Positions 6,044 through 22,633 of a stretch of DNA of 64,000 nucleotides are shown in pieces. Position 1 is the stretch's first letter, and the number at the start of each line of letters is the position of its first letter. The position numbers and the translations under genes were made by a program. The stretch covers positions 186,001 to 250,000 of the forward strand of contig NZ_JAPWDU010000002.1 in the NCBI RefSeq assembly GCF_027257155.1, written 5' to 3'. Source of the stretch: Cerasicoccus sp. TK19100. GTDB taxonomy: Bacteria > Verrucomicrobiota > Verrucomicrobiia > Opitutales > Cerasicoccaceae. The notes beneath the pieces were generated by a model, which searched no databases, was not told the origin of the DNA, and saw only the letters and a program-made list of their open reading frames with translations.

Positions 6044-6084
6044 AGCAGTGTGAATTCCACAAAAAGTTAGAAGGTTAGCTATAA

Positions 6085-7290
6085 ATGAAAAGCAAATCTA
6101 TCAAACTGGTAGCCTTGAAAGAACATGCTAAATTTCTTCGTGGTTTAACTTTCAAACCGACGGATAAAGTTGATTTTCTTTCGCCCGATTCTGTTGCGTG
6201 CATGCGAACCAAAAATGTGCAAGCTGAGCTAGACGAAAGCGATATCATTGCGATACCAAAAAGATTAGTTAAAAATTCCGAAAAGTTGCTCTGCGAAGGG
6301 GATATTTTAGTCTCCAGTGCCAACAGCTGGAATTTAGTAGGTAAATGTTGTTGGGTTCCGAAGTTGTCATATGAAAGCACTGCTGGCGGATTTATTTCAG
6401 TGCTGAGACCCAAAGACGAAAAGCTTAATAAGCGGTATCTCTATCAATGGTTCTCATCTGAAGTTATACAGCATCAAGTTAGGTCATTTGGGAACCAAAC
6501 AACAAATATCTCTAACTTAGATCATAAAAGAACTCTTAATCTGGAAATCCCGCTTCCACCGCTGGAAGAGCAAAAGCGCATCGCAAAGATTTTGGATGCG
6601 GCAGACGGCCTCCGGCAGCAGCGCCGCGAAGCCCTCACCGAACTCGACACCTTCCTCCAGTCCACCTTCCTCGACCTCTTCGGCGACCCGGTTACCAACC
6701 CGAAGGGATGGGATGTTATCTCGTTTGATAAAATTGGAAAATTTATCAGTGGTGCAACTCCAAGCAAACAAAGGGCCGACTTTTGGGATGGCGAATTTCC
6801 TTGGGTAAGCCCCAAGGATATGAAAGTGAACCGAATCGTCGACTCCATCGACCATATAAGTGATTCGGCATTTAAAGAAACGAACCTTAAACGTATCTCA
6901 CCAAGTCATGTGCTTATTGTTGTGCGAGGGATGATTTTGGCGCACTCGTTTCCAGTAGCAGTTAACGAAGTTGAAATCGCCATAAACCAAGACATGAAGG
7001 CGATTTCCCCCGATGAGTCGTTTGATACAATTTTTCTATCGGAGTGTATACGAGGCCTGAAAACAAAAATACTTTCCGAGGTGTCAACTGCTGGTCACGG
7101 AACAAAACGTTTCGATGCCATTGCTATGGCAAAGATTAATGTTCCTGTCCCCCCCCTCGACCTCCAGCAGCATTTCGCAAAGATTGTCACCAAGGTCGAA
7201 GAACAAAAGACCCGGATGCGCGAACAACTGACCGAACTCGACGACCTCTTCGCCGCCCTCCAACAACGCGCCTTCAACGGAGAACTGTAG
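6085..7290 (+). CDS. hsdS: type I restriction-modification specificity subunit
   Basis: This 401-residue protein shows the two-fold layout of HsdS: TRD1 (about residues 1-150), the central conserved region beginning IPLPPLEEQKRIAKILDAAD, TRD2 (about 205-350), and a second conserved region VPVPPLDLQQHFAKIV ending in TELDDLFAALQQRAFNGEL. The two conserved helices are internal repeats of each other, each ending in a TELD motif. The TRD segments are more AT-rich than the conserved repeats, as expected from TRD exchange between hsdS alleles. It picks the DNA target for HsdM and HsdR. The next gene starts 3 bp after its stop, so the two are very likely cotranscribed. Confidence 0.95.
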   Translation: MKSKSIKLVALKEHAKFLRGLTFKPTDKVDFLSPDSVACMRTKNVQAELDESDIIAIPKRLVKNSEKLLCEGDILVSSANSWNLVGKCCWVPKLSYESTAGGFISVLRPKDEKLNKRYLYQWFSSEVIQHQVRSFGNQTTNISNLDHKRTLNLEIPLPPLEEQKRIAKILDAADGLRQQRREALTELDTFLQSTFLDLFGDPVTNPKGWDVISFDKIGKFISGATPSKQRADFWDGEFPWVSPKDMKVNRIVDSIDHISDSAFKETNLKRISPSHVLIVVRGMILAHSFPVAVNEVEIAINQDMKAISPDESFDTIFLSECIRGLKTKILSEVSTAGHGTKRFDAIAMAKINVPVPPLDLQQHFAKIVTKVEEQKTRMREQLTELDDLFAALQQRAFNGEL

Positions 7291-7292
7291 GT

Positions 7293-10200
7293 ATGTCTGA
7301 TAATGCAGAGCAGATGACCCTTGAAATCGAACACCTGAGCCTTCCGGCTTTGGTGTTTGAGAAGGTTGTGCTCGGCTTGGGCAGGATTCTGCATCAGTTG
7401 CATGCACCTCAGCAAATTCAGTGTTCACCGGGGGTGAAGCTAAAGGGACGACGTAAAAACGAAGCGTGGGAGTATCGCTGCACGGATGGCGCTAGATACC
7501 TCGTCACCTCAACCACCTCAGACAAGAAACGCGAGGGATATACCGGAATTCTCCTCCGTGATGAACGTAGGCTAACATGGCTCAAACACTCCACACTTGA
7601 AAACGGTAAACTCGACTTTGACGAAGGTACCCGGAATCAGATAAGTCTTTCGTGGGCGAACCGATTTACTTATCGGAAAGAATCCAAGGAGCCCGAGCAA
7701 AAGGGCCTTCGACCTCCTCAAATTGGTGCCCTTCATGCCATCGCGGCCCATTGGTCCCTCTCTAACGAAGCTGCGACCATCGTGATGCCAACGGGAACCG
7801 GCAAGACCGAGACCGTGCTATCTGTGCTAATCACGGCTCAGCCCAAGTGTATGCTGGTGGTTGTGCCCAGTAAGGCGCTCAAGGATCAAACAGTTAGGAA
7901 GTTCCAAACCCTCGGAATTCTTCCCGATCTGGGTGCGGTGCCTCATGAAATTGTTCGACCAGTAGTTGGCGTCTTGGATCATCAGTTGAAGACAGATGAG
8001 CACCTTGAAATATTTGAACAGTGCAATGTGGTTGTCGCTGTCGTCAATTCGCTCACCAGCGGCAGCTCCGTTTCGTATATTCAGGAAATTGCAAAACGGT
8101 GCAGCCACCTTGTCCTGGATGAGGCACACCACGTCGCAGCACGTTCATGGAGTCGCCTTAAGGATGCCTTCGCCAAAGAAGAAAAACCAATTCTTCAGTT
8201 CACTGCGACTCCATTTCGAGAGGACCGCTCTCCACTGGGAGGCAAGGTCCTCTACAACTATCCGCTCAGCCGAGCACAAAGCGAGGGCTACTTCCTCCCA
8301 ATTAACTTTGAGGGCGTATTTGAAGTTGAACAAAGGACAGCTGATCAAAAGATCGCGGAGAAGGCGGTGGAACGTCTTCGAGCCGATATCGAAGAAGGAT
8401 TCGACCATCGCTTGTTGGCACGCTGTCAGAAGATTAACCGAGCAAAGGAAGTATTGCAGATCTACGAAGCGATCGCCCCGGACCTCAATCCTGTGCTGGT
8501 GCATAGCCAACTTGGCAATGTCGATAAGCAGATCGAGGCGCTGATTAGTGGAGAGAGCAAGATTGTCGTCACCGTTAATATGCTCTCGGAAGGTTTTGAC
8601 CTCCCCAGTCTCAAAGTGGCGGCTATACATGATACTTTTAAAAGTTTGGCAGTCACATTGCAGTTCGCTGGTCGGTTTCCGCGAGTCGGTTCAGGTAACT
8701 ATGGTAAGCCAACGATCATTGCTAATACTGGATCGGAGGATGTTTCCCGAGCACTTCAAGGATTATACGATGAAGATGCAAATTGGGACAATCTACTGAA
8801 CGAGCTTCAATTTGAAAAAGTAGCCGAACGATTGAGGTTCGAGGAATTTAACCGGCAATGTCAGGATCTGGGTGATGGGGAAATTTCAGAAGAATCGATC
8901 GCGGCTAACTTGAACGCCAAAAATCTGAATTTCCGTTTTAATACGGTAGTCTATCGAAATGCCCGAGACTTTAACCAGTTTGGTATCCGTCATGGCATCG
9001 AGCAAAATCATCACCTGGTTAGATCATGGGAGGTTCAAGATCAGAAAGTCGTCTTCTTCGTTACTCGACTTGTCGAGAAACCTCGATTTACCGATAACCG
9101 GTTGGTTGAAGATTCGACCTTCAACCTATACGTCGTCTATCACGATGAAGACAATCATCTGCTTCACATTGGTTCGTCGACAACCAGTATGAACTGCCAC
9201 GAGAAACTGGCAAAAGCCGTTTCGGGTGACAGTGTGGAACGGATTCAGGGCGAAGGGCCATACCGGGTGTTCTGCAAGATTGAGTCATTGATGCTCCAAC
9301 AGGTTGGGTTGTTCAGTGGAGGTGGTGCTCGGAACCACCGCTATTCCATGTTTGCTGGCGCAGACGTCACAGAGGCGATTGACCGTATTACGAACGACAA
9401 TGCCATGAAATCGAACTTTTTTGGCAACGGTTTCAAAGAAGGAGGACCAATCGGTATCGGTTGCTCATCTAAAGGAAAGATATGGGGACGTGACACCGGT
9501 TCCTTAAGTGAATGGATCGACTGGTGTGACGGTGTCGCTGTTGATCTGCTGGATACCACTCTGGACACGAGGCAGCTACTAGAAAACGTTCTGTTGCTAG
9601 AAGTCATCAAAGAACTTCCCAATCGGGAGTGTTGGTTTGTTGAATGGCCTGAGCGTTTTAACAGTATGAGAGAGAGGGCTCTCTCCTTCCTTTCAGATCA
9701 GCACGACGAACCGTTTTACCGATGGGAAATTTCAATCAAGGAATACAGTCACGAAGAGAATTCCTACAAAATCGAGGTGACTCACGTTGACGGTCAAATC
9801 CCTACCTCAACCTATATCTTTAAACTCACTGATGGAGAGGGATCAGGTTACAATGCAACACTTGATAGTGGGCCAAATCTTCGCATCAAGGGCGTCAAAG
9901 GGGAACCTCTTCTTCATGAATATTTCAACGAGTATCCTCCAATCTTGAGTTTCACTGACCATGCCTCTTTGGAAGGAGCTAACTTTGTCGACCCAAAGTC
10001 AACCCCGCCCTCATTCCCGGAGGGGCAGTTGGAGGTCAAGAACTGGAGTGGCGTAGACATCCTTAAAGAGTCACGCTGGAAGGACGGAGCAATGCGGGGA
10101 GATTCAATTCAGGCGATTGCCATGGAATGGTGCGTCCAAGAAGGGTTCGACGTAGTCGTAGATGATGACGGCGCGAATGAGGTTGCTGACATCGTTGCAG

Positions 10201-10607
10201 TCAAAGAGGAAGGAAATGGTCTGTGCCTTCGACTTCTGCATTGTAAGTATTCGGCTGGAGAAGATCCCGGGGCTAGGATAAAGGATGTTGTAGAAGTCTC
10301 TTCTCAAGCGGTTAAAAATGTTCCCTGGATGTGGTCTCTGAGCGACCTCCAGTCTAGACTGAATAAGCGGGATCAAGATCGCATGAAGAAGGGAGCGTCA
10401 CGCTTCTTTCATGGAGATCGTCCCTCCCTTAAGAAAATTGCACGCATATCACAAATACGTCCTAAATATACCAAAGAGATTATCATTGTTCAGCCAGGGA
10501 TTTCAGCAGCCAGTTTGACGCCAGAAATGAGCTCAGTCCTTGGTTCTGCGGACTCATATATCAGAACTCGTTTGGGATGTTGTCTCAAGGTCTGGTGCTC
10601 TGCATAG
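7293..10607 (+). CDS. SF2 DEAD/DEAH-box helicase with probable PD-(D/E)XK C-terminal domain
   Basis: The 1104-residue protein has a superfamily 2 core: Walker A MPTGTGKTET near 164-173, DEAH in VLDEAHHV near 274, FTATPF near 303, and motif VI QFAGRFPR near 457-464. The C-terminal 600 residues match nothing I know by name. Near residues 960-985 the pattern ADIVAV...LLHCKYS followed by VVEVSSQA looks like the D...x-x-K core and Q motif of restriction endonuclease-fold domains. It starts 3 bp after hsdS, in the place where hsdR would be expected, so it may be an alternative translocase/nuclease subunit for HsdMS. A true HsdR exists further on, so this is either a second effector or a separate system. 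The helicase call is certain; the nuclease call is inference. Confidence 0.85.
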   Translation: MSDNAEQMTLEIEHLSLPALVFEKVVLGLGRILHQLHAPQQIQCSPGVKLKGRRKNEAWEYRCTDGARYLVTSTTSDKKREGYTGILLRDERRLTWLKHSTLENGKLDFDEGTRNQISLSWANRFTYRKESKEPEQKGLRPPQIGALHAIAAHWSLSNEAATIVMPTGTGKTETVLSVLITAQPKCMLVVVPSKALKDQTVRKFQTLGILPDLGAVPHEIVRPVVGVLDHQLKTDEHLEIFEQCNVVVAVVNSLTSGSSVSYIQEIAKRCSHLVLDEAHHVAARSWSRLKDAFAKEEKPILQFTATPFREDRSPLGGKVLYNYPLSRAQSEGYFLPINFEGVFEVEQRTADQKIAEKAVERLRADIEEGFDHRLLARCQKINRAKEVLQIYEAIAPDLNPVLVHSQLGNVDKQIEALISGESKIVVTVNMLSEGFDLPSLKVAAIHDTFKSLAVTLQFAGRFPRVGSGNYGKPTIIANTGSEDVSRALQGLYDEDANWDNLLNELQFEKVAERLRFEEFNRQCQDLGDGEISEESIAANLNAKNLNFRFNTVVYRNARDFNQFGIRHGIEQNHHLVRSWEVQDQKVVFFVTRLVEKPRFTDNRLVEDSTFNLYVVYHDEDNHLLHIGSSTTSMNCHEKLAKAVSGDSVERIQGEGPYRVFCKIESLMLQQVGLFSGGGARNHRYSMFAGADVTEAIDRITNDNAMKSNFFGNGFKEGGPIGIGCSSKGKIWGRDTGSLSEWIDWCDGVAVDLLDTTLDTRQLLENVLLLEVIKELPNRECWFVEWPERFNSMRERALSFLSDQHDEPFYRWEISIKEYSHEENSYKIEVTHVDGQIPTSTYIFKLTDGEGSGYNATLDSGPNLRIKGVKGEPLLHEYFNEYPPILSFTDHASLEGANFVDPKSTPPSFPEGQLEVKNWSGVDILKESRWKDGAMRGDSIQAIAMEWCVQEGFDVVVDDDGANEVADIVAVKEEGNGLCLRLLHCKYSAGEDPGARIKDVVEVSSQAVKNVPWMWSLSDLQSRLNKRDQDRMKKGASRFFHGDRPSLKKIARISQIRPKYTKEIIIVQPGISAASLTPEMSSVLGSADSYIRTRLGCCLKVWCSA

Positions 10608-11733: not shown

Positions 11734-11737
11734 CCCG

Positions 11738-11753: not shown

Positions 11754-11775
11754 GCATGCGACAATGCTCGCATGC
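11754..11775. promoter_or_regulatory. inverted repeat GCATGCGA/TCGCATGC over a start codon
   Basis: GCATGCGA (11754-11761) and TCGCATGC (11768-11775) form a perfect 8-bp inverted repeat with a 6-nt spacer. It overlaps the ATG at 11772 of the ParE/RelE-like gene. It could be an operator for autoregulation, as in toxin-antitoxin loci, or a hairpin occluding the start codon. Confidence 0.4.
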
Positions 11776-12014: not shown

Positions 12015-12027
12015 AGCGCGTTCCGAT

Positions 12028-12043
12028 TTTTTTGTGGAAAATT
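12028..12043 (+). repeat. TTTTTTGTGGAAAATT direct repeat, copy 2
   Basis: Exact second copy of the element at 11738-11753, here 65 bp before the ATG of the 57-aa gene. Bases flanking the two copies differ, so only the 16-bp core is conserved. Confidence 0.5.
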
Positions 12044-12107
12044 CCGTGGTCAAATGTGGGCACCGGAACGAACCGGAAAACGATAACAACCCAACAAAGG
12101 TAATAAC

Positions 12108-12281
12108 ATGTCCAAATCAGATAAAAGCAATCCTATGACCAGTAGCCGGGCCGCAGCAATTCAATCCGCATCGGCTAAAAGCGGGGGAGGCCAGGTGTCC
12201 AAGGGCTCCTTTGCAGCGCGTGCCCAAAGTGCTGTTTCCCGGAACGCCGGTGCGGGCGGACGCGGCGGTAAATCGAAGTAA
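12108..12281 (+). CDS. 57-aa SMP-motif-like small protein
   Basis: The ATG at 12108 is preceded by AAAGG with 7-nt spacing. The 57-residue product is rich in A, S, G, K and R. It has MTSSRAAAIQSASAKSGGGQ and SKGSFAARAQSAVSRN, which resembles the seed-maturation-protein (SMP) motif (MTPxDAARIQSAxAK) found in short proteins on bacterial plasmids and islands. The C-terminus is glycine-rich. Function is unknown; such peptides are predicted to be disordered and may bind nucleic acid. A strong hairpin follows 17 bp after the stop. Confidence 0.55.
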   Translation: MSKSDKSNPMTSSRAAAIQSASAKSGGGQVSKGSFAARAQSAVSRNAGAGGRGGKSK

Positions 12282-12297
12282 GGCACAGTCACCAAAC

Positions 12298-12325
12298 GGG
12301 GTTGCGGAGAAATATCCGCAACCCC
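12298..12325 (+). terminator. 11-bp perfect hairpin after the 57-aa gene
   Basis: GGGGTTGCGGA (12298-12308), loop GAAATA, TCCGCAACCCC (12315-12325): a perfect GC-rich stem. The following bases (TAAACTTTC) are only weakly T-rich. It is either an intrinsic terminator or an mRNA-stabilising or attenuating hairpin ahead of the gene starting at 12351. Confidence 0.6.
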
Positions 12326-12350
12326 TAAACTTTCAACAAATTTGAATACC

Positions 12351-14357
12351 ATGAGCCGACCTAAAGAACTGGACAGTGCCTCCGCCATCGTCGAGGCCAT
12401 TTTTGGAGAAACCATTACCGCTGAGGCGAAAGCACATTACGAGGAGCGGTTGCGATCCAATTATTTGCATAAAAAGAATGAGGACAAAATTCCCGGTCAC
12501 TACCGTTGGCGATCCAACTATGGTGAGCGACGCCGCAGCCACCTTACCACAGAAGCCCGACATTACTTTGAGAACCTGCTATTGTTGGACAGCATTTTCC
12601 TGATGCCGAAGAAGGTGTTCGAAGTCTTGGGGGATGAAGATAAACGAACTGTTGAGGAGCGCGTTCGCTATGCGAAACATATGATACGGCAGCGTCGAGC
12701 GGAGCTGGCCCCAATTCAAGCCCAACGACAAGCTGTGCTCAACCAATCGGCATCTTGGGAAAATCTTCCGGATGACTTTGATCTATACCGGGATAGCTTG
12801 GGGAGTTTGCTGATTCAGGGCGGTCGAGTGAATTCACCGAAAGAAAACGGTGAGTCTTGGAAGTTCCCTCTGGCAGACAAAATCCGTCGGATCGAAGAGA
12901 GTCCAGAGTGGCAGGCCGGAGACCTTTCGAAGGCAGCAGAGCGAGCTATGTGCTTTCACGACCTAGGGAATACGGAATTGGCGCATGTGCAGATAGATGA
13001 ACTGCTGGCTGAAAACCCCATGGAACCAGTGCTTTACTATGTCAAAGCGGTGCTTCTGATTGAAGGTGCCGCTTATCACTGGAAGCAATCGTTTTTACAT
13101 CGCCAGTTCGGAGCAACGGGTATTCCACTGACTGCTGAGGAGCGTTGGCATGATGAGCAGGCTTCGGACCAAGCGATGGATGCGATGACTAAGGAGCAGC
13201 ACGCGCTGGAGCAGTTGCTATGCTGTTATCAGCATTGGGATGAGAATAAGTTTCCAAATTGGGCACGTTTTGGCCGACGTCATGATGCCGAACTTCTCTT
13301 GATTCAGAAGATTATTGCCAAGGCATGTCTGCATCTAGATACGACCGTTTATATTGATTACAGCCGTGAGAATTCGGTTTTAACTAAGATCAGGGCATTT
13401 ATTGAGCGTGTTCACTCAAGTTCACGTTTCGAGCATAATTTCTACAACCCTGCCCAGTTTGCTTCTTTGCTGGGTTTCTGGAAGCTCTGTCGCTTTTTAA
13501 ACTCAGAGTTGCATGGGGCTTCAGTGAAGCAATGGCACGTAGCAGTAACGGATTGTTTCAATGAAACGCAGGAGGGTATCTGGCGCACAAGGGATTGGTT
13601 TGAACCGCCGCTCGATGGGCATATGAAGTTTGAGCATCCGTTTACCAACCGGTGGCCAGAGTTAATCGTTCGGGTCTGTGGCAATGCGGAGTTTATGCAT
13701 GCATTGGATATAGCCAAGATCCCTCAGGATTTCTTGTCATTGATCGATAGGGCGCATGCATCTCAAACCGCAGATGGGCATTTGTGGAGCCGTATTCAGC
13801 TTGAATGGTCCCGGCTGGTTACAGAGTCCTGCGATACGCCGTTGAAACGGATTCAAGTATGTCGGTGCGCTCTTGAACATCTGCTTTGGACGGAGTCGGA
13901 CTTTGGTAAACGCTGGCGGACGCACTGGGAGTATGCGGAAGTGCGCTGTCATTTTGATGCAGCGATGCTCCTGGCCGATCAGGATAAGCAGCTTGCACGT
14001 GACCACCTTGGCATTATGGAGGCACGGCTAGATCAGTGCCCGGACATCCAGAAAAAGGCGATGACGCTTTTTACCTTGGATCAATCCTACGACGATCTTG
14101 ATGTCGAGAGAGATTCCGATCTCATCGGGAATGATATTAACATATTTATGCACGAAGTGGAGCCAGCAACGGAAGCCGCCGATGGATGGTCCAGGGCTCC
14201 TAAATCGGAAACCTTTGATAGGCTAATCTTAAATATTCCTGGAGCAGACTTCATGACACCCTCCGAAATGGTCGACCGCTTTGATTCAGTCCGCCAGAAG
14301 CTTCAGGATTTGAAAGGAAGTCCATTTGAACGGCTGAAAGCCTATTTGGAAGGCTGA
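12351..14357 (+). CDS. 668-aa helical protein of unknown function in SNF2/actin-like module
   Basis: The ATG at 12351 is preferred over an upstream TTG. The product is almost entirely alpha-helical and unusually rich in Trp, His and Glu. A stretch near residues 200-235 (ERAMCFHDLGNTELAHVQID..ENPMEPVLYYVKAVLL) resembles a TPR-like helix pair. I recognise no catalytic motif and no named family. It ends 100 bp before the SNF2 helicase and is on the same strand. A scaffold, sensor or adaptor role for the helicase and the actin-like ATPase is a guess from context. The tail (about 600-668) is acidic and then basic, possibly an interaction segment. Confidence 0.75.
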   Translation: MSRPKELDSASAIVEAIFGETITAEAKAHYEERLRSNYLHKKNEDKIPGHYRWRSNYGERRRSHLTTEARHYFENLLLLDSIFLMPKKVFEVLGDEDKRTVEERVRYAKHMIRQRRAELAPIQAQRQAVLNQSASWENLPDDFDLYRDSLGSLLIQGGRVNSPKENGESWKFPLADKIRRIEESPEWQAGDLSKAAERAMCFHDLGNTELAHVQIDELLAENPMEPVLYYVKAVLLIEGAAYHWKQSFLHRQFGATGIPLTAEERWHDEQASDQAMDAMTKEQHALEQLLCCYQHWDENKFPNWARFGRRHDAELLLIQKIIAKACLHLDTTVYIDYSRENSVLTKIRAFIERVHSSSRFEHNFYNPAQFASLLGFWKLCRFLNSELHGASVKQWHVAVTDCFNETQEGIWRTRDWFEPPLDGHMKFEHPFTNRWPELIVRVCGNAEFMHALDIAKIPQDFLSLIDRAHASQTADGHLWSRIQLEWSRLVTESCDTPLKRIQVCRCALEHLLWTESDFGKRWRTHWEYAEVRCHFDAAMLLADQDKQLARDHLGIMEARLDQCPDIQKKAMTLFTLDQSYDDLDVERDSDLIGNDINIFMHEVEPATEAADGWSRAPKSETFDRLILNIPGADFMTPSEMVDRFDSVRQKLQDLKGSPFERLKAYLEG

Positions 14358-14382
14358 AAAATCATGTCGGGCGGACCGTCGT

Positions 14383-14392
14383 CTGACGTCAG
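14383..14392. promoter_or_regulatory. CTGACGTCAG palindrome upstream of SNF2 helicase
   Basis: A perfect 10-bp palindrome in the 100-bp spacer before the ATG at 14458. GCTGACTTCTCACATCAG follows at 14398, adding another imperfect CTGA..TCAG pair. The 9-bp core TGACGTCAG matches the site at 817-825, and its last 8 bp (GACGTCAG) recur at 2017-2024, so the same regulator may act on several island genes. Confidence 0.4.
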
Positions 14393-14457
14393 AAAAGCTG
14401 ACTTCTCACATCAGGTGTTTACTTTATGGTGTATTCCTAATTTAAATTACGAGACTG

Positions 14458-17400
14458 ATGCCAGAGAATGCTACAGATTCCGAACCACCTTTCGTAGCCG
14501 ATGATTGGGTGATCGACACCGCCAATGGCCAGAAGGCGCAGTTCACAGGACGTTCCCGGAAAGTGGGATCGCATGTGATGGTCGAATTGCGTTACCCGGA
14601 TGGTTCAGTTGCACGGAGGCCCCTGGGGGCGATCAGGACTATAAGCGCGGAGACCGGCACCACCGTCGTCGATCAGTTACGCAATGGTGCTTTTGGTAAA
14701 TTGCGGGACATCCAGCGCCTCATTACCTTTCAGAAGCTCAAAGGGACGCTGCACGAGGTGGTTTACTCCATGGAGGCGGCGCAGATTGATTTCTACCCCT
14801 ATCAGTTCAAACCGGTGCTGAAGTTCATTAACTCGCCCACCGAAAGATTGATTCTGGCCGATGAAGTGGGTCTGGGTAAGACGATTGAGTCCGCGCTCGT
14901 CTGGACGGAGTTGCAGGCCCGGAAACAGGCCAAGCGTTTGCTGGTGGTCTGTCCGAAGATTTTGACCGAGAAGTGGCGCGATGAGTTACGTTCTAAATTT
15001 CTCTTTGATGCCCGCATCGTGGACTTTCGCAATCTTCAGCAGGAAATAGCGGAACTGAAAAAAGCGGGACCGGTGCATCCCTTTGTTTTGATCGCTTCTT
15101 ATTCCGGGTTGAGACCTCCCAAAGACGAAATTACGCTGCTGGACCAACCTGTGGATGCGGATCAGGCCGGGTCTGCAAAGACACGCTTTTTGCGTGATAT
15201 CCGGCACTGGGACTATTCGTTCGCTCCTTTTGACTTGGTGATCTACGACGAAGCCCACTATATGCGTAACGCCGCGACCTCGACATTCAATCTTGGTGAG
15301 AGCCTGGCGGCACATGATGACACGGCGGTCTTATGCGTATCTGCGACTCCGATCAATAACAGCAACAATGATCTTCACAGTCTGTTGCGCCTGATTGACC
15401 GGGACTTCTTCGAGACTCAGGGCATGTTCGAAGAATTGCTTGATGCAAATCGCCCGACCGTGCGCGCCATCAATACGCTCTCAAGGCCAATACTCGATAT
15501 GCAGGCCCTGGAACAGGAAGTCGACGGCATGTCGAGAAGTAGCTTCATTAACGATTCCCCCTTGTTCAAGCAGCTCTTGGAGCAACTGGATGCACTTGAG
15601 TCGAATCCATCAAATAAGGCCTTACTGGCGCGTGCGCAAGATACAGCGGAAAAGCTGAATCTGCTTGGTAATTACGTGAACCGGACGCGACGTGTGCAAG
15701 TCGAGGGCAAGCGTCCTGTGCGTGAAGTTAAAGTGCTCCCGGTAGAATATACGGATGAGGAAATGAAGCTTTACAGCACCATACTTGAATTGGTGCGCCG
15801 CCTCTGCGAGCGGGATATGAAACCTTTCCATGTGTTCCGGGTATTGGGCCTACAACTGAGGGCGGCGAGTTGCCTGCCAGTAATTGCCCAGGACATTCGG
15901 AATGGCCGTCTGGGCGGCTTGAGCGCCACAGTCGATGAAATGAACGAACTCTTAGCTGAGGGCGTTGGCGATGAAGTGTTCGAAGAATTCTTTGGTGGAG
16001 TGCAACCCGACGAAGAATATGAAGCTCCCGACTTAGCCGAATTGGTTGATTACGATTTTGAAAAACATGACACTAAATTCAAATCCCTGGCCGACCTGCT
16101 ATCAAAAACGGCTGCGAAGGGAGAGAAGATAGTCATCTTTGCCTACTACCGACCGACACTCGCTTACCTTCGGCGTCGCTTACAGGATGAAGACTACGAG
16201 GTGGCTGTGATACATGGTGGCGTTGAGCATGAACAGCGCTGGGCAGAGTTGGATCGCTTCAAAGATCCGAATGGTCCACGCATTCTGCTTTCATCCGAAG
16301 TCGGTAGCGAAGGTATCGACCTGCAGTTCTGTAGCCGCTTGGTGAACTACGACCTGCCTTGGAACCCGATGAAGGTCGAACAGCGAATCGGTCGTATAGA
16401 CCGTGTGGGTCAAAAGTCGGAAAAACTCTCGATCTTCAATTTTAAAGTAAAAGACACCATCGAGGAGCGACTCTATGACCGTTTGCACGCAAAACTGCTA
16501 AGATTTTCGAATAGCCTGGGTGACTTGGAGAAAGTTATTGGTGAAGAAGTCCAGAAACTGACCATCAAACTGTTGAGTCAAAAGCTCACACCGGAACAGG
16601 AGCGGGACCGCATGGAACTTGCAGCCAACGTAATTGAGAACCAATTGCTCGCGATTCAGGATCTGGAGGATTCCGGTGAAGCTTTAGTCGCACTTTCAGA
16701 TTACGTGCAAAAGAAGATCAAGGAGGACCATGAAAAGGGTCGCTTCCTACAGGCGTATGAACTGGAGGACTACCTGTCTGACTTTTTCGAACGCAATTTT
16801 CCCGGGACGGAGCTTAACTTTAATACCCCTGCGGATGGGTGTATGCGCTTGAGGCTGAGCTACGATGCCCAAAGCTCCTTGTCTGAATACATCCGTAACG
16901 ACCACACCTTGAGCGCGCGACCACTACGCCAGCGTGAATTTTCAATTAGCTTCCAGCGCGAAGCGATGGCGAGAATGTCAGCGGCACAACGCAAAGGAGT
17001 GACTTTCATCAATCACCTTTCTCCTTTGATCCGTTGGGTCACGCAACTCAACGAGCAGAGCGACCATGATTTCCACAAAGTGTCTGCTCTCAAACTGGAG
17101 TCGGGACAATTCCCGGTCGGCTCATACTTGTATCGCGTAGAGCGCTGGCTGTTCAAGGGACTGGCAACCCGTGATTCGCTAAGTTATGCGGTTATCGATT
17201 TGGACACCGGCAAGGTGCTCTCAGAAGATGAAAGTGAGCTCTTGGTCCAGGAGGCCATGCGTAGTGGGATCGACTGGGACTATGCGAAGTGGAACAGTGA
17301 AGCGATCATGGAGGCGTATGATCGGGTCACTGATGTTCAAGGTGAGTGGATCGGTGAGGCGTTTACCCGCTACGAGGCCGAGAACGATACTAATATTCAA

Positions 17401-17637
17401 ATTCGTGTTCGACGAGCCTCCAACCACTGGGACCGCCTGATCCGCCAGAGTGAGCAAGCAATTAGCACAATGAAGGCGCTCGGGCGTAAAGAAAGCCAAA
17501 TTCGTGGGCGTGAGACTCGGTTGAAAAACGAGCGTGAAAACAAGGCGCAACGGATTTCCGAATTAGAGCGAGGCGGTGAGACAGAGCCGAATCAATCTGA
17601 GATCGCTGCTGGTATCATTCAAATAACCAAATCTTAG
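14458..17637 (+). CDS. SNF2/RapA-like superfamily 2 helicase
   Basis: The 1059-residue protein has a short N-terminal beta domain (residues about 15-65, possibly SH3-like) and then a full SNF2 core. This comprises LADEVGLGKTIES (about 132-144), YDEAHYMRN (about 261), VSATPINN (about 294), and SEVGSEGIDLQ with QRIGRIDRVGQ (about 612-651). The last 50 residues form a charged coiled coil. The length and motifs resemble DISARM DrmD, Zorya ZorD and RapA-like remodellers. No drmA/B/C or zorA/B is nearby, so neither system is indicated. It would be an ATP-driven DNA translocase or remodeller. The downstream ATPase gene follows after 20 bp with a strong ribosome-binding site, so they form an operon. 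Confidence 0.85.
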   Translation: MPENATDSEPPFVADDWVIDTANGQKAQFTGRSRKVGSHVMVELRYPDGSVARRPLGAIRTISAETGTTVVDQLRNGAFGKLRDIQRLITFQKLKGTLHEVVYSMEAAQIDFYPYQFKPVLKFINSPTERLILADEVGLGKTIESALVWTELQARKQAKRLLVVCPKILTEKWRDELRSKFLFDARIVDFRNLQQEIAELKKAGPVHPFVLIASYSGLRPPKDEITLLDQPVDADQAGSAKTRFLRDIRHWDYSFAPFDLVIYDEAHYMRNAATSTFNLGESLAAHDDTAVLCVSATPINNSNNDLHSLLRLIDRDFFETQGMFEELLDANRPTVRAINTLSRPILDMQALEQEVDGMSRSSFINDSPLFKQLLEQLDALESNPSNKALLARAQDTAEKLNLLGNYVNRTRRVQVEGKRPVREVKVLPVEYTDEEMKLYSTILELVRRLCERDMKPFHVFRVLGLQLRAASCLPVIAQDIRNGRLGGLSATVDEMNELLAEGVGDEVFEEFFGGVQPDEEYEAPDLAELVDYDFEKHDTKFKSLADLLSKTAAKGEKIVIFAYYRPTLAYLRRRLQDEDYEVAVIHGGVEHEQRWAELDRFKDPNGPRILLSSEVGSEGIDLQFCSRLVNYDLPWNPMKVEQRIGRIDRVGQKSEKLSIFNFKVKDTIEERLYDRLHAKLLRFSNSLGDLEKVIGEEVQKLTIKLLSQKLTPEQERDRMELAANVIENQLLAIQDLEDSGEALVALSDYVQKKIKEDHEKGRFLQAYELEDYLSDFFERNFPGTELNFNTPADGCMRLRLSYDAQSSLSEYIRNDHTLSARPLRQREFSISFQREAMARMSAAQRKGVTFINHLSPLIRWVTQLNEQSDHDFHKVSALKLESGQFPVGSYLYRVERWLFKGLATRDSLSYAVIDLDTGKVLSEDESELLVQEAMRSGIDWDYAKWNSEAIMEAYDRVTDVQGEWIGEAFTRYEAENDTNIQIRVRRASNHWDRLIRQSEQAISTMKALGRKESQIRGRETRLKNERENKAQRISELERGGETEPNQSEIAAGIIQITKS

Positions 17638-17657
17638 AAATAGCAAAGGAGGAAGCA

Positions 17658-19166
17658 ATGGCGGGATTCTTCAAAAAGCTCAAACAGCGCATCTTTTATG
17701 AAAAATCAGACCAGAAGCCTTCGATCCGTCCCGGCGACATTCCTGATGGAAACGCCGCAATACCCAAGTTTACGTTACCACCTCGGGACGAAGCACCTCA
17801 GCAAGCCGAACGGGATGCTTATTTCGTTCAGATCGGATTGGATTTCGGCACCTCCTTTACCAAAGTGGTTTGCCGAGACATCATGATCGATAAGCCATGG
17901 GTTTACATGCCGGACTATCCCTGCGATCCTGAACTGCCTTTTCTGATATCCAGCACAGTGTGTTTCAATGATGGGCGCTTTTCCCACCCGAAACGCCTGG
18001 ATGGAGCCTATACCTCGACATCGCTCGTTCATGTGAAGATGGCACTGCAATGTGTGGGAGCGGCTGACACGACGAACAAGCATCTAGACGGTTATCGGGC
18101 ACTTGTTCCAGAGGGCCTCGATCTGTCTACTTTTGTGGAGGCTTCTTGCATCTATTTACTTGCAGGAATCATGGGCGAGGTAAAGGGCGCTATTCGTAGC
18201 CGTTTCACCGGCTCGGTCGAGGGGGACCAGATACATGTGAATATGGCTGTTCCGGTGGCTTCCGCCGATGATGATCGGGTCGGAGAGCTTTTCGAGCGAG
18301 TCCTACGTTTATCCTGGTCAATGGCCGATGAAATGACGGGGCATCCGGAGTGCCTACTGCAGGAGGTCATTGATTCAATAGCAAGACATGAAGCAAACGC
18401 GGCTTCAGAGTCCGTGAAGGAGATTTGCTTTATTTACCCGGAAGTCAGTGCAAATGTTCAAGGCTTTATCCGCTCCCGCTCATCGCAACCGGGCTTGTAT
18501 TTGTTTTGTGACACAGGAGCTGGCACCGTCGATCAAAGCCTGTTCCAGTTCAGCCGTAAAAACAGTGGTGACGAATATCTAATCTATCTATCGGCACAGG
18601 TTTTACCTATCGGTTCGTGTCGCATCGAAGAACTGGCGCTGGAATATTCGCCCGAACAAGGATGGAAGGCACTTGAGGAGTTTCGTAGGTTCAAAGAATC
18701 CGGAGCAAATGATCCACACCTGCAGAAAGCAAGATATGCCATCGGTAATGAATTGGAAAAGCGAACCAACCAGACCATTGCACTTGGAAAAAAGAAGCTA
18801 ACCTCACCCAAAAGCATCAACGAACTGCGTGTAATCTTCGGTGGAGGTGGGCACTGCACCGACCCTTATAAAATTGGGGTGATGAAGCAGTTTGACAGCA
18901 CGATATTTCGGAACGAGTTGATTGCACAACGTCGACGTGCCGAGCCCAATTTTGATCGAGGAATGCCCGATTTGCGCACCGAGTTCAATCTGAAGCCCGG
19001 CCAGGAACGCTGGTCCCGCCGACTGTCTGTCGCCTATGGTCTAAGTTTTGCGAAGATTGATCTGGCAGCATTCCGCTTACCCAAGGATGTTAGCACTCCA
19101 TCCGAGGATGAGATTGTTAAAAAACGTGCAGTTACTGCACATGCGCCGACAAAGGATGATTGCTAA
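17658..19166 (+). CDS. actin/Hsp70-fold ATPase
   Basis: A strong Shine-Dalgarno (AAAGGAGG) lies 6 nt before the ATG. The 502-residue protein has the three signatures of the actin/Hsp70 ATPase fold in order: phosphate-1 IGLDFGTSFTKVV near 57-69, phosphate-2 FCDTGAGTVDQSLF near 282-295, and the adenosine motif VIFGGGGHC near 393-401. There is no substrate-binding domain as in DnaK and the spacing is not that of ParM or MreB. The N-terminal 50 residues are basic and probably disordered. It is inserted between the SNF2 helicase and hsdR, 20 and 32 bp apart, so probably cotranscribed with both. A role in complex assembly or in sensing is inferred; no named defence family is recognised. Confidence 0.8.
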   Translation: MAGFFKKLKQRIFYEKSDQKPSIRPGDIPDGNAAIPKFTLPPRDEAPQQAERDAYFVQIGLDFGTSFTKVVCRDIMIDKPWVYMPDYPCDPELPFLISSTVCFNDGRFSHPKRLDGAYTSTSLVHVKMALQCVGAADTTNKHLDGYRALVPEGLDLSTFVEASCIYLLAGIMGEVKGAIRSRFTGSVEGDQIHVNMAVPVASADDDRVGELFERVLRLSWSMADEMTGHPECLLQEVIDSIARHEANAASESVKEICFIYPEVSANVQGFIRSRSSQPGLYLFCDTGAGTVDQSLFQFSRKNSGDEYLIYLSAQVLPIGSCRIEELALEYSPEQGWKALEEFRRFKESGANDPHLQKARYAIGNELEKRTNQTIALGKKKLTSPKSINELRVIFGGGGHCTDPYKIGVMKQFDSTIFRNELIAQRRRAEPNFDRGMPDLRTEFNLKPGQERWSRRLSVAYGLSFAKIDLAAFRLPKDVSTPSEDEIVKKRAVTAHAPTKDDC

Positions 19167-19198
19167 TCATTAATCGTCTTAACTAGGCTACATGACAC

Positions 19199-22100
19199 AT
19201 GTCCAACTTCACTTTCCTGCGAGATGAGTTTCCGAAGCTTTGGGAGTCCACCCGAAGCCTCGAATCGTTGGCCCTGAATGATCCCCGTGCCAGTTGCTTC
19301 TACGCTCGCCGAACCACTGAACTGCTTTTGCACTGGCTCTATGAACATGAGTCGGCGCTGCATTTCCCATACTCTAGAAAGTTGGCGGCACTTTTAGAGG
19401 AGCCATCATTGCGGAATGTCGTTCCTCCTGAAGTCTTAACCAAATTACAGTATGTGCGCCAACTCGGTAATCTCGCGGTTCACAGCGGGAAGCGAATCCG
19501 TCAGTATGACGCGGTCCAAGCAACGAAGGAGGTTTATCATTGTTGCTTCTGGCTCGTTCGCACCTACACCCGCTTTGACCCCAAAATACTGGATGGCATC
19601 ACCTTTGAACAGACCAGGCTCCCGGATCATGGTCGTGCCGAGAATAAAGTCACTACGGAGAAGCTTAAGGCGCTTGAAATCGAGCTGGCACAAAAAGACA
19701 AGGAATTGCTCGATAAGAATGAAGCCCTGAAGGGTTACGATGCCCAGATCAAGCAACTCCGAGCTGAGATTGCAGAAGCTAAGAAGCGAAACCTTAGCCG
19801 GGCGGTGGCTCACGATTACGGTGAAGCTGAGACTCGGGATAAGTTCATCGATCTGCTTTTGAAAGAGGCCGGTTGGGACCCAGGCTTCAAAGACGGCTCC
19901 ATAAGGACTGCCGAATATGAAGTATCCGGAATGCAAAATACGAAGGGAATTGGTTTCGTCGATTATGTTTTATGGAGTGATGAAGGTAAGCCCTTGGCAG
20001 TAGTAGAAGCCAAGCGAACTCGCAAGGACGCACGGCTGGGACAAACTCAGGCTAAACTCTACGCTGATTGCTTGGAGCAGATGCACGGGCAACGTCCTAT
20101 TATATTTTACACCAATGGCTATGAGCATTGGCTTTGGGATGATGAACGTTTTCCGCCGCGCCGGATTCAAGGATTTCTAAAACAGGATGAATTGAAGCTC
20201 ATGATTGAGCGTCGCCAAAGCGCGAGCGATCTTGGTAAAGCTTACGTGGACAAGGACATCGCTGGACGCTATTATCAAGAGCAGGCGATCCGTCACATCA
20301 CTGAGAGCATGATGCAATGCCAGCGCAAATCGCTGGTAGTGATGGCAACTGGCTCTGGAAAGACTCGAACAGTCGTCGCACTCTGCGATCTACTCCAGCG
20401 GTGCAACTGGATAAAACGAGTTTTGTTTCTTGCTGATCGGGTAGCACTGGTGAACCAAGCGGTGAATGCGTTCAAAACGCACCTACCACACTGCAATCCC
20501 GTTAATTTGGTTACGGATCGGGAGCAAACTTCGTCCCGCGCCTATGTATCGACTTACCCCACGATGATGGGCTTAATTGATGATACGGATGATGGACTCA
20601 AGCGTTTCGGCGCCGGGCACTTCGATTTGATCATTATAGACGAAGCCCATCGCTCTGTTTATCAAAAATATCGAGCAATCTTTGAATACTTCGATTCTTA
20701 TCTTGTCGGATTGACGGCAACACCCCGCGATGAAGTTGACCGGGATACTTACGCTCTCTTTGAATTGAATCGGGGAGTGCCAACCTATGCCTACGAACTC
20801 GAACAAGCCGTTGCAGATGGCTATCTGACGCCACCAAAGCTTGTATCGGTGCCCATACGGATACCGCGCCAAGGGCTTAGCTATAATCAACTGGACGATG
20901 ATGAGAAAGAACAGTGGGACATGACTGAGTGGGATGACGAGGGCAACATCCCGACTGATGTGGAAGCTCCTGCGATCAATGAATGGCTGTTTAATATTGA
21001 TACTGTTGACAAGGTTCTGGAGCACTTGATGCAAAACGGTCTAAAAGTCGACGCTGGTCAACAGATCGGAAAAACGATCATATTCGCTAAGAATCACAAC
21101 CATGCGATGTTTATTCAGGAGCGGTTTGATGCGAACTACCCCCACCTGAAAGGTCAATTTGCGAGGGTGATCGACAATAAAGAAAGTTATGCGCAAAACC
21201 TGATCGATAAGTTTTCTTCAACGAAACCCATCAAAGACGCCCCCCGCATTGCAATCTCGGTAGACATGTTGGATACCGGCATCGACGTGCCAGATGTGGT
21301 CAATCTTGTATTCTTCAAAATCGTCCGATCTAAAACAAAGTTCTGGCAGATGATTGGTCGAGGAACGCGCCTTTGTCCGGATCTCTACGGAGTCGGGGAA
21401 GATAAAAACGAATTTTTCGTATTTGATTTCTGTGGAAACTTTGAGTTTTTCAACGAACACCCCGAAGGTGTTGATGGGAGCACACAAGAGTCAATCGGAA
21501 CCAAAATCTTTCGACAAAGACTAGAGCTTCTCGATGCCGTTCGTAAGCTTGAACCCAAACAGGATGAAGTGGTTATGATGGTAGCGGAGCCTGGTGGTAA
21601 TGAAACCGGTTTTGAATCTTCTCTTGTTGATATGCTTCACGGTGAGGTTGCGTCGATGCCACTGGAGAATTTTATGGTTCGTGCGAAACGTAAGCATGTG
21701 GTAACCTTTCAACACAGAAAGCGATGGTTCGATTTATCAGAAGAGGACTTGGGTATCCTTCACCGTGAAGTAGCCGGTCTACCAACAAAGCTACTGCCTG
21801 AAGACCCAACCGCCAAGTATTTCGATCTTTTGATTCTTCGGATACAGATTGGGAAACTAAAAAGTGATCCGGCAATAGCTAAGTTAATCGAGACAGTGAA
21901 GACGATTGCTTCAGACCTTGAACAGGTGCAAAGTATCCCGGCGGTCAGAAAGCAACTTGTCTTGATTGAGGCGCTTCAGTCGGATGATTACTGGCAAGAT
22001 ATTACTTTACCAATACTGGAAGTCGTCCGCCTACGTTTGCGTGATTTGATCCGTCATATCGAAAAGCGCAAAAGAAAGATCGTAACTACCGATTTCGATG

Positions 22101-22633
22101 ATGAAATCGGAGAATCGGTAGAGGTTAAAATCGCCGGGCTTGGAGCCGCCATTGATAAAGCACAATACAAGAAGAAGTTTCTCTCGTTCATTGAGGGCCA
22201 CGAAAACGATTTGGCCCTTCAAAAGGTGAAGCACAATCATTCGCTGACTCGCCTTGATCTTCAGGAGTTGGAGAAAATTCTATTTGAGTCCGGCGGACTC
22301 GGGGACCGCGAGCAATTTGAAGCTTGCTATGGTAAGCAGGAAAATCTCGGTCTGTTCATTCGCAAATTAATCGGACTGGACCGAGGTGCGGCAAAGAAAG
22401 CTTTTGACCAGTATCTTGACAACAGCCGTTTTAATTCAAAGCAGCTGGCATTTGTAAATCAGATCATCGATTACCTGACGCAAAATGGCATCATGGAGCC
22501 GAAGCTGCTTTTCGAGCATCCATTCACAAATATCGCGCCAGAAGGACCAATGTCGGTATTTGATGAAGGCGATGCCTCCAATATCATCCAAATCATTAAG
22601 GTGGTAAACCTGAATGCCGAGGGCACTGTATAA
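19199..22633 (+). CDS. hsdR: type I restriction endonuclease R subunit, EcoEI-type
   Basis: The 1144-residue protein has an N-terminal DUF4145-like helical domain (about 1-125), a coiled coil (about 150-200) and an HSDR_N nuclease domain. In that domain GFVDYVLW and VVEAKRT supply the D and ExK residues (near 252 and 269-271). The SF2 motor follows with MATGSGKTRT (about 381), IIDEAHRSVY (about 480), LTATPRDE (about 506) and IGRGTRLCPD (about 718), and then an EcoEI_R_C-type C-terminus. It is the ATP-dependent translocase/nuclease that would work with HsdM and HsdS at 4487-7290. It lies in the downstream cluster, just after the actin-like ATPase rather than next to hsdS. Confidence 0.93.
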   Translation: MSNFTFLRDEFPKLWESTRSLESLALNDPRASCFYARRTTELLLHWLYEHESALHFPYSRKLAALLEEPSLRNVVPPEVLTKLQYVRQLGNLAVHSGKRIRQYDAVQATKEVYHCCFWLVRTYTRFDPKILDGITFEQTRLPDHGRAENKVTTEKLKALEIELAQKDKELLDKNEALKGYDAQIKQLRAEIAEAKKRNLSRAVAHDYGEAETRDKFIDLLLKEAGWDPGFKDGSIRTAEYEVSGMQNTKGIGFVDYVLWSDEGKPLAVVEAKRTRKDARLGQTQAKLYADCLEQMHGQRPIIFYTNGYEHWLWDDERFPPRRIQGFLKQDELKLMIERRQSASDLGKAYVDKDIAGRYYQEQAIRHITESMMQCQRKSLVVMATGSGKTRTVVALCDLLQRCNWIKRVLFLADRVALVNQAVNAFKTHLPHCNPVNLVTDREQTSSRAYVSTYPTMMGLIDDTDDGLKRFGAGHFDLIIIDEAHRSVYQKYRAIFEYFDSYLVGLTATPRDEVDRDTYALFELNRGVPTYAYELEQAVADGYLTPPKLVSVPIRIPRQGLSYNQLDDDEKEQWDMTEWDDEGNIPTDVEAPAINEWLFNIDTVDKVLEHLMQNGLKVDAGQQIGKTIIFAKNHNHAMFIQERFDANYPHLKGQFARVIDNKESYAQNLIDKFSSTKPIKDAPRIAISVDMLDTGIDVPDVVNLVFFKIVRSKTKFWQMIGRGTRLCPDLYGVGEDKNEFFVFDFCGNFEFFNEHPEGVDGSTQESIGTKIFRQRLELLDAVRKLEPKQDEVVMMVAEPGGNETGFESSLVDMLHGEVASMPLENFMVRAKRKHVVTFQHRKRWFDLSEEDLGILHREVAGLPTKLLPEDPTAKYFDLLILRIQIGKLKSDPAIAKLIETVKTIASDLEQVQSIPAVRKQLVLIEALQSDDYWQDITLPILEVVRLRLRDLIRHIEKRKRKIVTTDFDDEIGESVEVKIAGLGAAIDKAQYKKKFLSFIEGHENDLALQKVKHNHSLTRLDLQELEKILFESGGLGDREQFEACYGKQENLGLFIRKLIGLDRGAAKKAFDQYLDNSRFNSKQLAFVNQIIDYLTQNGIMEPKLLFEHPFTNIAPEGPMSVFDEGDASNIIQIIKVVNLNAEGTV

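What the first reader, a model, noticed from the sequence alone, without database searches (positions are those of the whole stretch)
12351..19166. Candidate new module: helical protein + SNF2 helicase + actin/Hsp70-like ATPase within a type I RM locus
Seen: three consecutive same-strand genes, the last two 20 bp apart with a strong Shine-Dalgarno, placed directly before hsdR (32 bp). Known: SNF2 helicases are used in DISARM, Zorya and other defence systems, but no partner genes of those systems are present here. An actin/Hsp70-fold ATPase as a stable partner of a SNF2 helicase is not a layout I know from a named system. Inference: the trio is either a stand-alone defence system or an accessory layer to the restriction enzyme, with the ATPase as switch or assembly factor.
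Basis: partly seen in the sequence, partly recalled or inferred. Interest (0 to 1): 0.8.

Follow-up and report, generated by a model that had tools for sequence, protein, structure and literature searches.

The report
SNF2 motor paired with Hsp70-like ATPase
Bacteria of many phyla carry a two-gene unit, often beside known antiviral genes, that couples a DNA-moving motor of the SNF2 family to a small chaperone-like ATPase; I know of no named defence system with this pairing, and its function is still untested.

Summary
The 668-aa gene has no detectable relative in the 80 GTDB loci or in 235 other genomes of its class. The other two genes form a real module. All 80 loci found with the Hsp70-like protein alone have an SNF2-derived gene on the same strand, 76 within 150 nt; in 2 of them the motor part is gone. 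Searches from the SNF2 side agree. The HSP-paired SNF2s in the tree are one clade (77 of 77, support 1.0); their nearest relatives pair with an Hsp90-like (Tiamat-like) ATPase. The Hsp70-like protein is an Hsp70 nucleotide-binding domain without substrate-binding domain; five key ATPase residues are kept in 71 of 71, and its C-terminal tail is peculiar. Neighbours include many kinds of defence genes. Best reading: a mobile defence module in which the ATPase gates a RapA-like DNA translocase, here inserted in a type I restriction locus. Defence and mechanism are inferred. Nine searches of open papers showed no description of the pair.

The parts
14458..17637 (+). SNF2/RapA-like dsDNA translocase, 1059 aa (module gene 1)
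   Evidence: Pfam SNF2-rel_dom 8.8e-26 and Helicase_C 1.6e-23; AlphaFold2 model pLDDT 83.6 aligns with E. coli RapA along 67-1058 (8t0l_F, 798 residues, Z 20.3, rmsd 8.9)
14860..14883 (+). Walker A region DEVGLGKT (residues 135-142)
   Evidence: D135-T142 invariant in 69 aligned SNF2 partners
15247..15258 (+). DEAH motif (residues 264-267)
   Evidence: D264 and E265 invariant, A266 and H267 nearly invariant in 69
17646..17653 (+). Shine-Dalgarno AAGGAGGA of the Hsp70-like gene
   Evidence: read directly
17658..19166 (+). Hsp70-like ATPase: NBD fold without substrate-binding domain, 502 aa (module gene 2)
   Evidence: AlphaFold2 model pLDDT 88.2, pTM 0.85; the 50 listed structural matches are all Hsp70s, DnaK 2v7y Z 26.9, rmsd 3.1, 306 aligned; next to an SNF2-derived gene in 80 of 80 loci
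17841..17864 (+). phosphate-1 loop DFGTSFTK (residues 62-69)
   Evidence: D62, F63, G64, T65, K69 each 71 of 71
18441..18443 (+). E262, at the place of the Hsp70 catalytic glutamate (equivalence recalled from DnaK)
   Evidence: 71 of 71
18510..18527 (+). phosphate-2 loop DTGAGT (residues 285-290)
   Evidence: D285 and G287 71 of 71, T290 68 of 71
19143..19163 (+). C-terminal tail APTKDDC
   Evidence: [STMG][KRP][DE]xx at the very C terminus in 41 of 93 distinct Hsp70-like tails against 1 of 996 other ORFs; the motif was chosen after seeing such tails
12351..14357 (+). 668-aa TPR-like protein; not part of the conserved module
   Evidence: no relative in the 80 loci or in 235 other genomes of the class
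19199..22633 (+). hsdR of the host type I RM locus (context)
   Evidence: PADLOC REase_I 4e-166; same order SNF2-HSP-hsdR in Luteolibacter L024, 68% identical hsdR
4487..10607 (+). hsdM, hsdS and a 1104-aa DEAD/DEAH helicase of the same locus (context)
   Evidence: homologues in the same order in L024 (71%, 33%, 52% identity)

Best explanation
A two-gene, horizontally spread anti-invader module. Gene 1 is a RapA-like SNF2 motor that would move along double-stranded DNA. Gene 2 is an Hsp70 nucleotide-binding domain without substrate-binding domain that I propose binds the accessory (N- and C-terminal) parts of gene 1 and uses its ATP/ADP state to hold or release the motor. The module has no recognised nuclease. 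The likely outcome is therefore motor-driven clearing or stalling of transcription or replication complexes on foreign DNA, or loading of DNA for a neighbouring effector (here possibly HsdR). Shown by sequence and models: the constant pairing, conserved ATPase residues in both proteins, parallel divergence, the Hsp70 NBD fold, RapA-like architecture, neighbourhoods rich in defence genes. Inferred: physical complex, gating by the Hsp70-like protein, action on phage DNA.
For: Pairing from the Hsp70-like side: 80 of 80 loci on the same strand, 76 within 150 nt, in two gene orders (67 SNF2 first, 13 HSP first) (78 of 80 also by blastp). Pairing from the SNF2 side: of 754 genomes in two classes 10 had a match; leaving out the 2 centre genomes chosen for carrying it, 8 remain: 3 next to an HSP, 4 next to an Hsp90-like gene, 1 at a contig end. 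Plasmids: 9 records, 6 with an HSP and 3 with an Hsp90-like neighbour (3 of the 6 were known from the HSP side, and 2 carry the same HSP accession). Cyanobacteria: 21 of 291 genomes match; 20 opened, 19 with an HSP adjacent, 1 at a contig end; 8 of the 19 on contigs not seen before. Distances of the two proteins correlate (r 0.948, 71 loci; best of 2000 permutations 0.123). HSP-paired SNF2s form one clade in the tree (77 of 77, support 1.0). Two cyanobacteria keep the HSP with an open SNF2-derived frame that lost Walker A and the second RecA domain but kept N- and C-terminal parts, which points to contact outside the motor. Neighbours: 83 PADLOC families at E<=1e-30 among 92 genes against 9 among 84 control genes.
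Against: No experiment and no complex model (monomers only). Defence is inferred from neighbourhood; some pairs lie among metabolic genes (L012, L015). Absence of a nuclease leaves the end effect open. RapA, the best full-length structural match, is a transcription factor, so a housekeeping-like role is conceivable; the match has a large rmsd (8.9-11.1). Parallel divergence is expected of any co-inherited operon. The motorless variant rests on two species; none further appeared in 291 cyanobacteria, and two separate losses are possible. The neighbour control was not matched for length or taxonomy, and one gene can match many families.
Confidence: 0.55

Rival explanations
1. Accessory layer of the type I restriction system: the pair helps HsdR find, remodel or hand over DNA and works only with hsd genes.
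For: In the window and in Luteolibacter L024 the pair lies between hsdS/helicase and hsdR, in the same order. L013 has a type I REase (PADLOC REase_I) directly upstream, and L014 and L021 have a gene of the same blastp cluster there.
Against: Homologues (E<=1e-5) of the window hsdR, hsdM and hsdS are in 1, 2 and 5 of the 80 loci, though distant RM families would be missed. Other neighbours include CRISPR I-D, Hachiman, PglX, MkoC, HmaC, DrmA and PDC-S68.
Confidence: 0.12
2. Not defence: a DNA-transaction module (transcription recycling, repair or replication restart), with the Hsp70-like part as assembly factor.
For: RapA is the best full-length structural match; some copies sit among metabolic genes (L012, L015).
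Against: Patchy presence: 3 of 236 genomes of the class; 5 of 385 and 5 of 369 in two others, centre genomes and Hsp90-paired ones included (lower bounds); 21 of 291 cyanobacteria. Plasmid-borne copies. Neighbours richer in defence families than the control.
Confidence: 0.2
3. DISARM variant, with the SNF2 protein as DrmD.
For: PADLOC DrmD model PDLC02623, 631 bits; one locus, L086, has a DrmA-like gene upstream.
Against: NCBIfam DrmD 358.8 bits, cut-off 610; a DrmD over that cut-off (L127) scores only 183 bits with this family's profile; none of seven window proteins is a DrmA, DrmB or DrmC by its best hits, the SNF2 protein matching DrmA models only through its motor.
Confidence: 0.03
4. Plasmid or element maintenance: a ParM-like actin homologue with a helicase.
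For: Profile hits to chains named 'Actin-like ATPase' at E 0.007-0.02 and to ParM at E 0.68-0.74; plasmid copies exist.
Against: The 50 structural matches listed are all Hsp70s, and the best profile hits are DnaK (E 0.0006).
Confidence: 0.05
5. Three-gene system including the 668-aa protein.
For: Same strand, 100 nt upstream; TPR-like hint.
Against: No relative in the 80 loci, in 235 other class genomes or in plasmids.
Confidence: 0.03

Closest known systems
SNF2 plus Hsp90-like (sacsin/GHKL) pairs seen here in L115, L116, L118, L119, L123-L126; PADLOC TmtA for the two scanned
   Same: Nearest SNF2 relatives in the tree; same two-gene layout, motor plus chaperone-fold ATPase
   Different: Partner is a 1030-1117-aa Hsp90-like protein, not an Hsp70 NBD. 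That TmtA stands for Tiamat is recalled.
DISARM DrmD / ARMADA ArmA / BREX BrxH RapA-like helicases
   Same: RapA-like SNF2 motor (ArmA from PMC12458937, passages seen)
   Different: ARMADA adds a PglX-like methyltransferase and a YprA-like helicase (passages seen); DISARM and BREX gene sets are recalled. The passage search of PMC12458937 found no mention of Hsp70.
CoCoNuT CnuD Hsp70-like proteins (PMC11090510, passages seen)
   Same: Hsp70-like ATPase in a predicted defence system
   Different: Attached to McrB/McrC homologues, with substrate-binding and HEAT-like parts and, by that paper, degenerate Walker A; here NBD only, active-site residues invariant, SNF2 partner, no McrB among the tested window genes.
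PADLOC candidate PDC-M61B
   Same: The only PADLOC model that hits the Hsp70-like proteins: E 0.0047 for the window, 2.7e-5 for L049, none for L058
   Different: Weak and partial; what PDC-M61 contains was not shown by any search.
Hsp70/DnaK
   Same: NBD fold (Z 26.9 to 2v7y)
   Different: 13% identity, no substrate-binding domain in the model, short C-terminal peptide or CxxC tail instead in about half of the tails.
E. coli RapA
   Same: Architecture from about residue 67 on
   Different: 18-20% identity, rmsd 8.9-11.1; NCBIfam RapA 172.8 bits, cut-off 576; the first 65 residues are outside the listed alignments.
GAP1-N2 GTPase conflict systems with an HSP70 lacking its peptide-binding domain (PMC7159879, passages seen)
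   Same: Also use an HSP70 domain without peptide-binding part
   Different: GTPase-centred, with GrpE and DnaJ fusions; no SNF2 partner of the HSP70 in the passages seen.

Membership tests
Hsp70 nucleotide-binding domain superfamily | NBD fold | tested here: met
   AlphaFold2 pLDDT 88.2; the 50 listed matches are all Hsp70s, best Z 26.9 over 306 residues
Hsp70 nucleotide-binding domain superfamily | ATP-binding and catalytic residues | tested here: met
   D62, K69, K127, E262, D285 in 71 of 71; T290 in 68 of 71; roles recalled from DnaK
Hsp70 chaperones | substrate-binding domain | tested here: not met
   fold ends near 469; 33 residues follow; no Pfam HSP70 hit
SNF2 family | SNF2 ATPase plus Helicase_C with conserved motifs | tested here: met
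RapA | equivalog score above cut-off | tested here: not met
   172.8 bits, cut-off 576
DISARM | DrmD equivalog score above cut-off | tested here: not met
   358.8 and 163.5 bits, cut-offs 610 and 950
DISARM | DrmA, DrmB, DrmC nearby | tested here: not met
   no such gene among the seven window proteins scanned, though lists for three were cut at 25; ORF 10540-11733 was scanned with Pfam only
Zorya | ZorA/ZorB | tested here: inconclusive
   none among the listed hits of seven proteins, lists for three cut at 25; only motor similarity to ZorD
CoCoNuT | McrB-like GTPase with the Hsp70-like protein | tested here: not met
   none among the window proteins scanned
Type I restriction-modification | hsdM, hsdS, hsdR | tested here: met
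   present as flanking genes; the pair itself is not one of these subunits
SNF2 plus Hsp90-like pair | Hsp90-like partner | tested here: not met
   window partner has the Hsp70 fold; its SNF2 lies outside the Hsp90-paired branches
Anti-phage defence system | protection against phage | not testable with these tools
   only neighbourhood evidence

The most novel reading that the evidence does not exclude
A new class of immune module in prokaryotes: an SNF2 DNA translocase gated by a chaperone-derived ATPase, with two alternative gate types (an Hsp70 NBD without substrate domain, or an Hsp90-like protein), in some cyanobacteria possibly tethered to a membrane and in two species working without the motor. 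It would be a bacterial parallel to eukaryotic remodellers, whose SNF2 motors carry actin-fold subunits (recalled).
Probability: 0.4. Interest if true: 0.88.

Novelty: new variant of a known kind. Interest (0 to 1): 0.72.

Why it matters
RapA-like SNF2 motors recur in DISARM, ARMADA and BREX, yet how they are controlled is, as far as I know, unclear. A clade in which the motor's one constant companion is a chaperone-fold ATPase, Hsp70-like here and Hsp90-like in its nearest relatives, isolates the control part and makes it testable with two genes. It would also show what an Hsp70 domain does once its substrate-binding domain is gone. PADLOC's 'DrmD' label on this family could mislead annotation.

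Tried and rejected
Trio with the 668-aa protein: rejected. DISARM membership: rejected. Phage-borne system: the viral-contig scan with the Hsp70-like alignment found 26 pattern stretches, none a relative. The phage collection gave 3 unannotated 'Bacteriophage sp.' records with the SNF2 relative; the one opened (L125) pairs with an Hsp90-like gene next to a PglZ-looking ORF (PglZ by eye). Hits H14 and H15 were not opened.

Extra motorless SNF2 copies: sought in 291 cyanobacteria, none found; the one candidate with a short frame (492 aa) is a piece whose contig begins inside the gene, with a stop near that end. The blastp comparison of the two motorless proteins failed to run; only a MAFFT alignment was printed.

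DnaJ-type zinc finger: 8 of 93 tails have two CxxC pairs, against 10 of 996 other ORFs, none together with the C-terminal motif. Pfam DnaJ_CXXCXGXG hits are weak and below cut-off (3 of 10 proteins, E 0.015-0.15), so the name stays a resemblance. 44 of 93 tails have neither feature by these patterns.

Membrane anchor: in 14 N-extended cyanobacterial proteins the best 19-residue Kyte-Doolittle mean is 1.34-1.73, against at most 1.05 in the other proteins measured; four cyanobacterial proteins (L049, L053, L068, L121) have no such extension. A hint only; no predictor was run.

Tree: the first carried wrong labels on second SNF2 genes of some loci and was replaced. Cut, split or near-identical copies were left out of it. 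'Unpaired' SNF2 genes were judged on short flanks: 20 ORFs under 340 bits show no partner, 8 of them touching a locus end; 4 more under that score lie within two genes of an Hsp70-like gene as second SNF2 genes of a locus, and L168 and L171 have such a second gene too.

Sampling: 24 of the 104 confirmed relatives were not returned by the tool. Neighbour sample: 137 eligible genes, 93 drawn, 1 dropped as an SNF2 fragment (L015), 92 scanned; another SNF2 fragment and a second SNF2 gene, both of L077, stayed in, so 'DrmD' matches there are not independent. The counts 83 and 9 are families, not genes.
Full report
WHAT IS THERE. The window belongs to a genome of 5.07 Mb in 13 contigs. From 4487 to 22633 the main genes run on the plus strand: hsdM, hsdS, a 1104-aa DEAD/DEAH helicase, a 397-aa ORF without Pfam hit, the 668-aa protein, SNF2, the Hsp70-like protein (HSP) and hsdR.

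THE UNIT IS A PAIR. The first six HSP sequences (window, two genomes of the class, three plasmids) all adjoin an SNF2 gene. Their alignment was used for the one genome-contig scan: 104 relatives, 80 returned, by record title from Verrucomicrobiota, Deltaproteobacteria, Cyanobacteria, Alpha- and Gammaproteobacteria, Treponema, Acidobacteria, Bacteroidetes, Omnitrophota and others. By blastp 78 of 80 have an SNF2 gene, some of them cut by contig ends or split. By a profile made from these SNF2 genes all 80 have an SNF2-derived gene on the same strand, 76 within 150 nt or overlapping; 67 with SNF2 first and 13 with HSP first, the latter all cyanobacterial by record title. Frames are split in L015, L021, L035 and L173. 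The 668-aa protein has no relative in these loci (best blastp E 0.85), in plasmids or in 235 other genomes of the class. The closest locus, Luteolibacter L024, repeats hsdM-hsdS-helicase-X-SNF2-HSP-hsdR with 71, 33, 52, 66, 44 and 68% identity, but X is a 294-aa ORF with no detectable similarity and no Pfam hit. So the slot of the 668-aa gene is variable.

THE REVERSE TEST. The SNF2 profile was run on 385 and 369 genomes of the classes of two loci, Mycoplana and Variovorax (only two candidates per genome were scored, so counts are lower bounds). Ten genomes had a match at E<=1e-60. Two are the centre genomes, chosen because they carry the pair. Of the other eight, three (830-1229 bits) adjoin an HSP, four (586-600 bits) adjoin a 1030-1060-aa Hsp90-like protein with a sacsin domain (Pfam SACS in all four; PADLOC TmtA in the two scanned), and one ends at the contig edge. 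In plasmids nine records match and all nine were opened: six have an HSP (three of them already known from the HSP side, two sharing one HSP accession) and three the Hsp90-like partner, one annotated 'molecular chaperone of HSP90 family' in an archaeon. SNF2 ORFs below 340 bits, including a DrmD over its NCBIfam cut-off (183 bits), mostly show neither partner in the short flanks at hand (20 ORFs); four others are second SNF2 genes near an existing pair. In a FastTree of 94 SNF2 sequences the 77 HSP-paired ones are one clade (support 1.0); with the 8 Hsp90-paired ones and one cut locus they form a clade of 86 (support 0.865) apart from 8 unpaired ones. Sampling favours HSP-paired members, since most came from the HSP search. 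Pairwise distances of HSP and SNF2 correlate at r 0.948 over 71 loci (best of 2000 permutations 0.123; rank correlation 0.75).

WHAT THE PROTEINS ARE. HSP: AlphaFold2 with 71 sequences, pLDDT 88.2, pTM 0.85. Residues 55-469 are an Hsp70 NBD: the 50 PDB entries listed are all Hsp70s, best DnaK 2v7y, Z 26.9, rmsd 3.1, 306 aligned, 13% identity. No substrate-binding domain follows. D62, K69, K127, E262 and D285 are in 71 of 71 and T290 in 68 of 71; their Hsp70 roles are recalled from DnaK. SNF2: pLDDT 83.6. RapA entries align along almost the whole chain (8t0l_F: 798 residues, Z 20.3, rmsd 8.9; 8spg: 768, Z 22.1, rmsd 11.1; 18-20% identity); other SNF2 motors score within about two Z units but over the motor only. 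A long helical hairpin (947-1038) and a C-terminal strand follow the motor. No nuclease domain was seen in either protein.

TWO ODD FEATURES. First, the C-terminus of HSP. A motif [STMG][KRP][DE]xx at the very end (window: TKDDC) occurs in 41 of 93 distinct tails and in 1 of 996 other mechanically called ORFs of the loci held; the strict form [ST]K[DE]xx in 25 and 0. The motif was framed after looking at the tails. Another 8 tails carry two CxxC pairs (10 of 996 controls), never together with the motif; 44 have neither. Hsp70s are known to end in a short peptide that docks partners (EEVD, recalled), so a docking peptide is my guess. Second, the motor can be lost: in two cyanobacteria (L049, L053) the gene beside HSP is an open frame of 457 or 478 aa that matches the SNF2 profile at its start, weakly in part of the first RecA domain, and at its C-terminal third. 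Profile positions 92-146 and 253-750 (L049) or 102-151 and 280-729 (L053), with Walker A and the second RecA domain, have no counterpart. Their HSPs are 49% identical, so the state looks old, unless lost twice. It suggests that HSP contacts the accessory parts. Fourteen cyanobacterial HSPs add an N-terminal hydrophobic stretch, a possible membrane anchor; a coiled coil after it is my reading of the sequence, not a prediction.

IS IT DEFENCE? Context says probably. Named neighbours: CRISPR type I-D (L009), Hachiman (L010), type I REase (L013) and PDC-S68 (L063), DrmA (L086), MkoC (L043), HmaC (L052), PglX (L073, where 5 of 9 proteins had no hit at 1e-60). Of 92 sampled neighbour genes the PADLOC matches at E<=1e-30 span 83 families, against 9 families for 84 genes from 14 other stretches; the control genes are fewer in residues (40,264 against about 48,700) and come from three classes only. 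No neighbour gene is fixed: the most widespread neighbour cluster, a UvrD-like helicase by eye, occurs in 10 of 83 loci. Some copies stand among metabolic genes (L012, L015). No experiment exists here.

LITERATURE. Nine full-text searches of the open PMC library that combined Hsp70, SNF2, chaperone, DISARM, DrmD, Tiamat or antiphage terms showed no report of this pair in their listings; one search listed 15 of 324 papers. Nearest are CoCoNuTs (PMC11090510, passages), ARMADA (PMC12458937, passages), conflict systems with HSP70 (PMC7159879, passages) and MORC restriction loci (PMC2292703, passages). The DnaJ-bNACHT25 paper (PMC12169576, abstract and outline) shows a chaperone used in phage sensing. 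Most subscription journals were not searchable.

VERDICT. A conserved SNF2 plus Hsp70-NBD pair is established by this analysis. That it defends against invaders is likely. That the Hsp70-like part gates the motor is my best guess.

Noticed in passing
L115:4717-11384, L116:7494-13826, L118:7503-13783, L119:7228-13976, L123-L126: SNF2 genes directly followed by an Hsp90-like sacsin/GHKL gene, in bacteria, one archaeal plasmid and one record labelled phage: a sister pair that deserves its own study.
   Followed up: partly
L049:8593-9966 and L053:3362-4798: SNF2-derived proteins that lost the motor but have open frames and still sit beside the Hsp70-like gene.
   Followed up: partly
PADLOC model PDLC02623 (DrmD): Scores three proteins of this SNF2 group at 384-631 bits although a DrmD over the NCBIfam cut-off (L127) is only distantly related; possible mislabelling source.
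   Followed up: partly
L030:3032-5413: A second, more ordinary-looking Hsp70-type ORF (793 aa, GIDLGTTNS) two genes upstream of the SNF2-HSP pair.
   Followed up: no
L063 and L066:15422-18694, L060:16560-19829: A second SNF2-type gene of about 1090 aa recurs a few kb downstream of the pair, followed by a 231-252-aa gene.
   Followed up: no
window 22734-25948, minus strand: Four ORFs without Pfam hits facing hsdR, before a regulator with weak helix-turn-helix hits (26004-26918) and, by eye, nuo genes; possibly remains of a mobile element.
   Followed up: no
window 10540-11733: 397-aa ORF without Pfam hit between the DEAD/DEAH helicase and the 668-aa gene.
   Followed up: no
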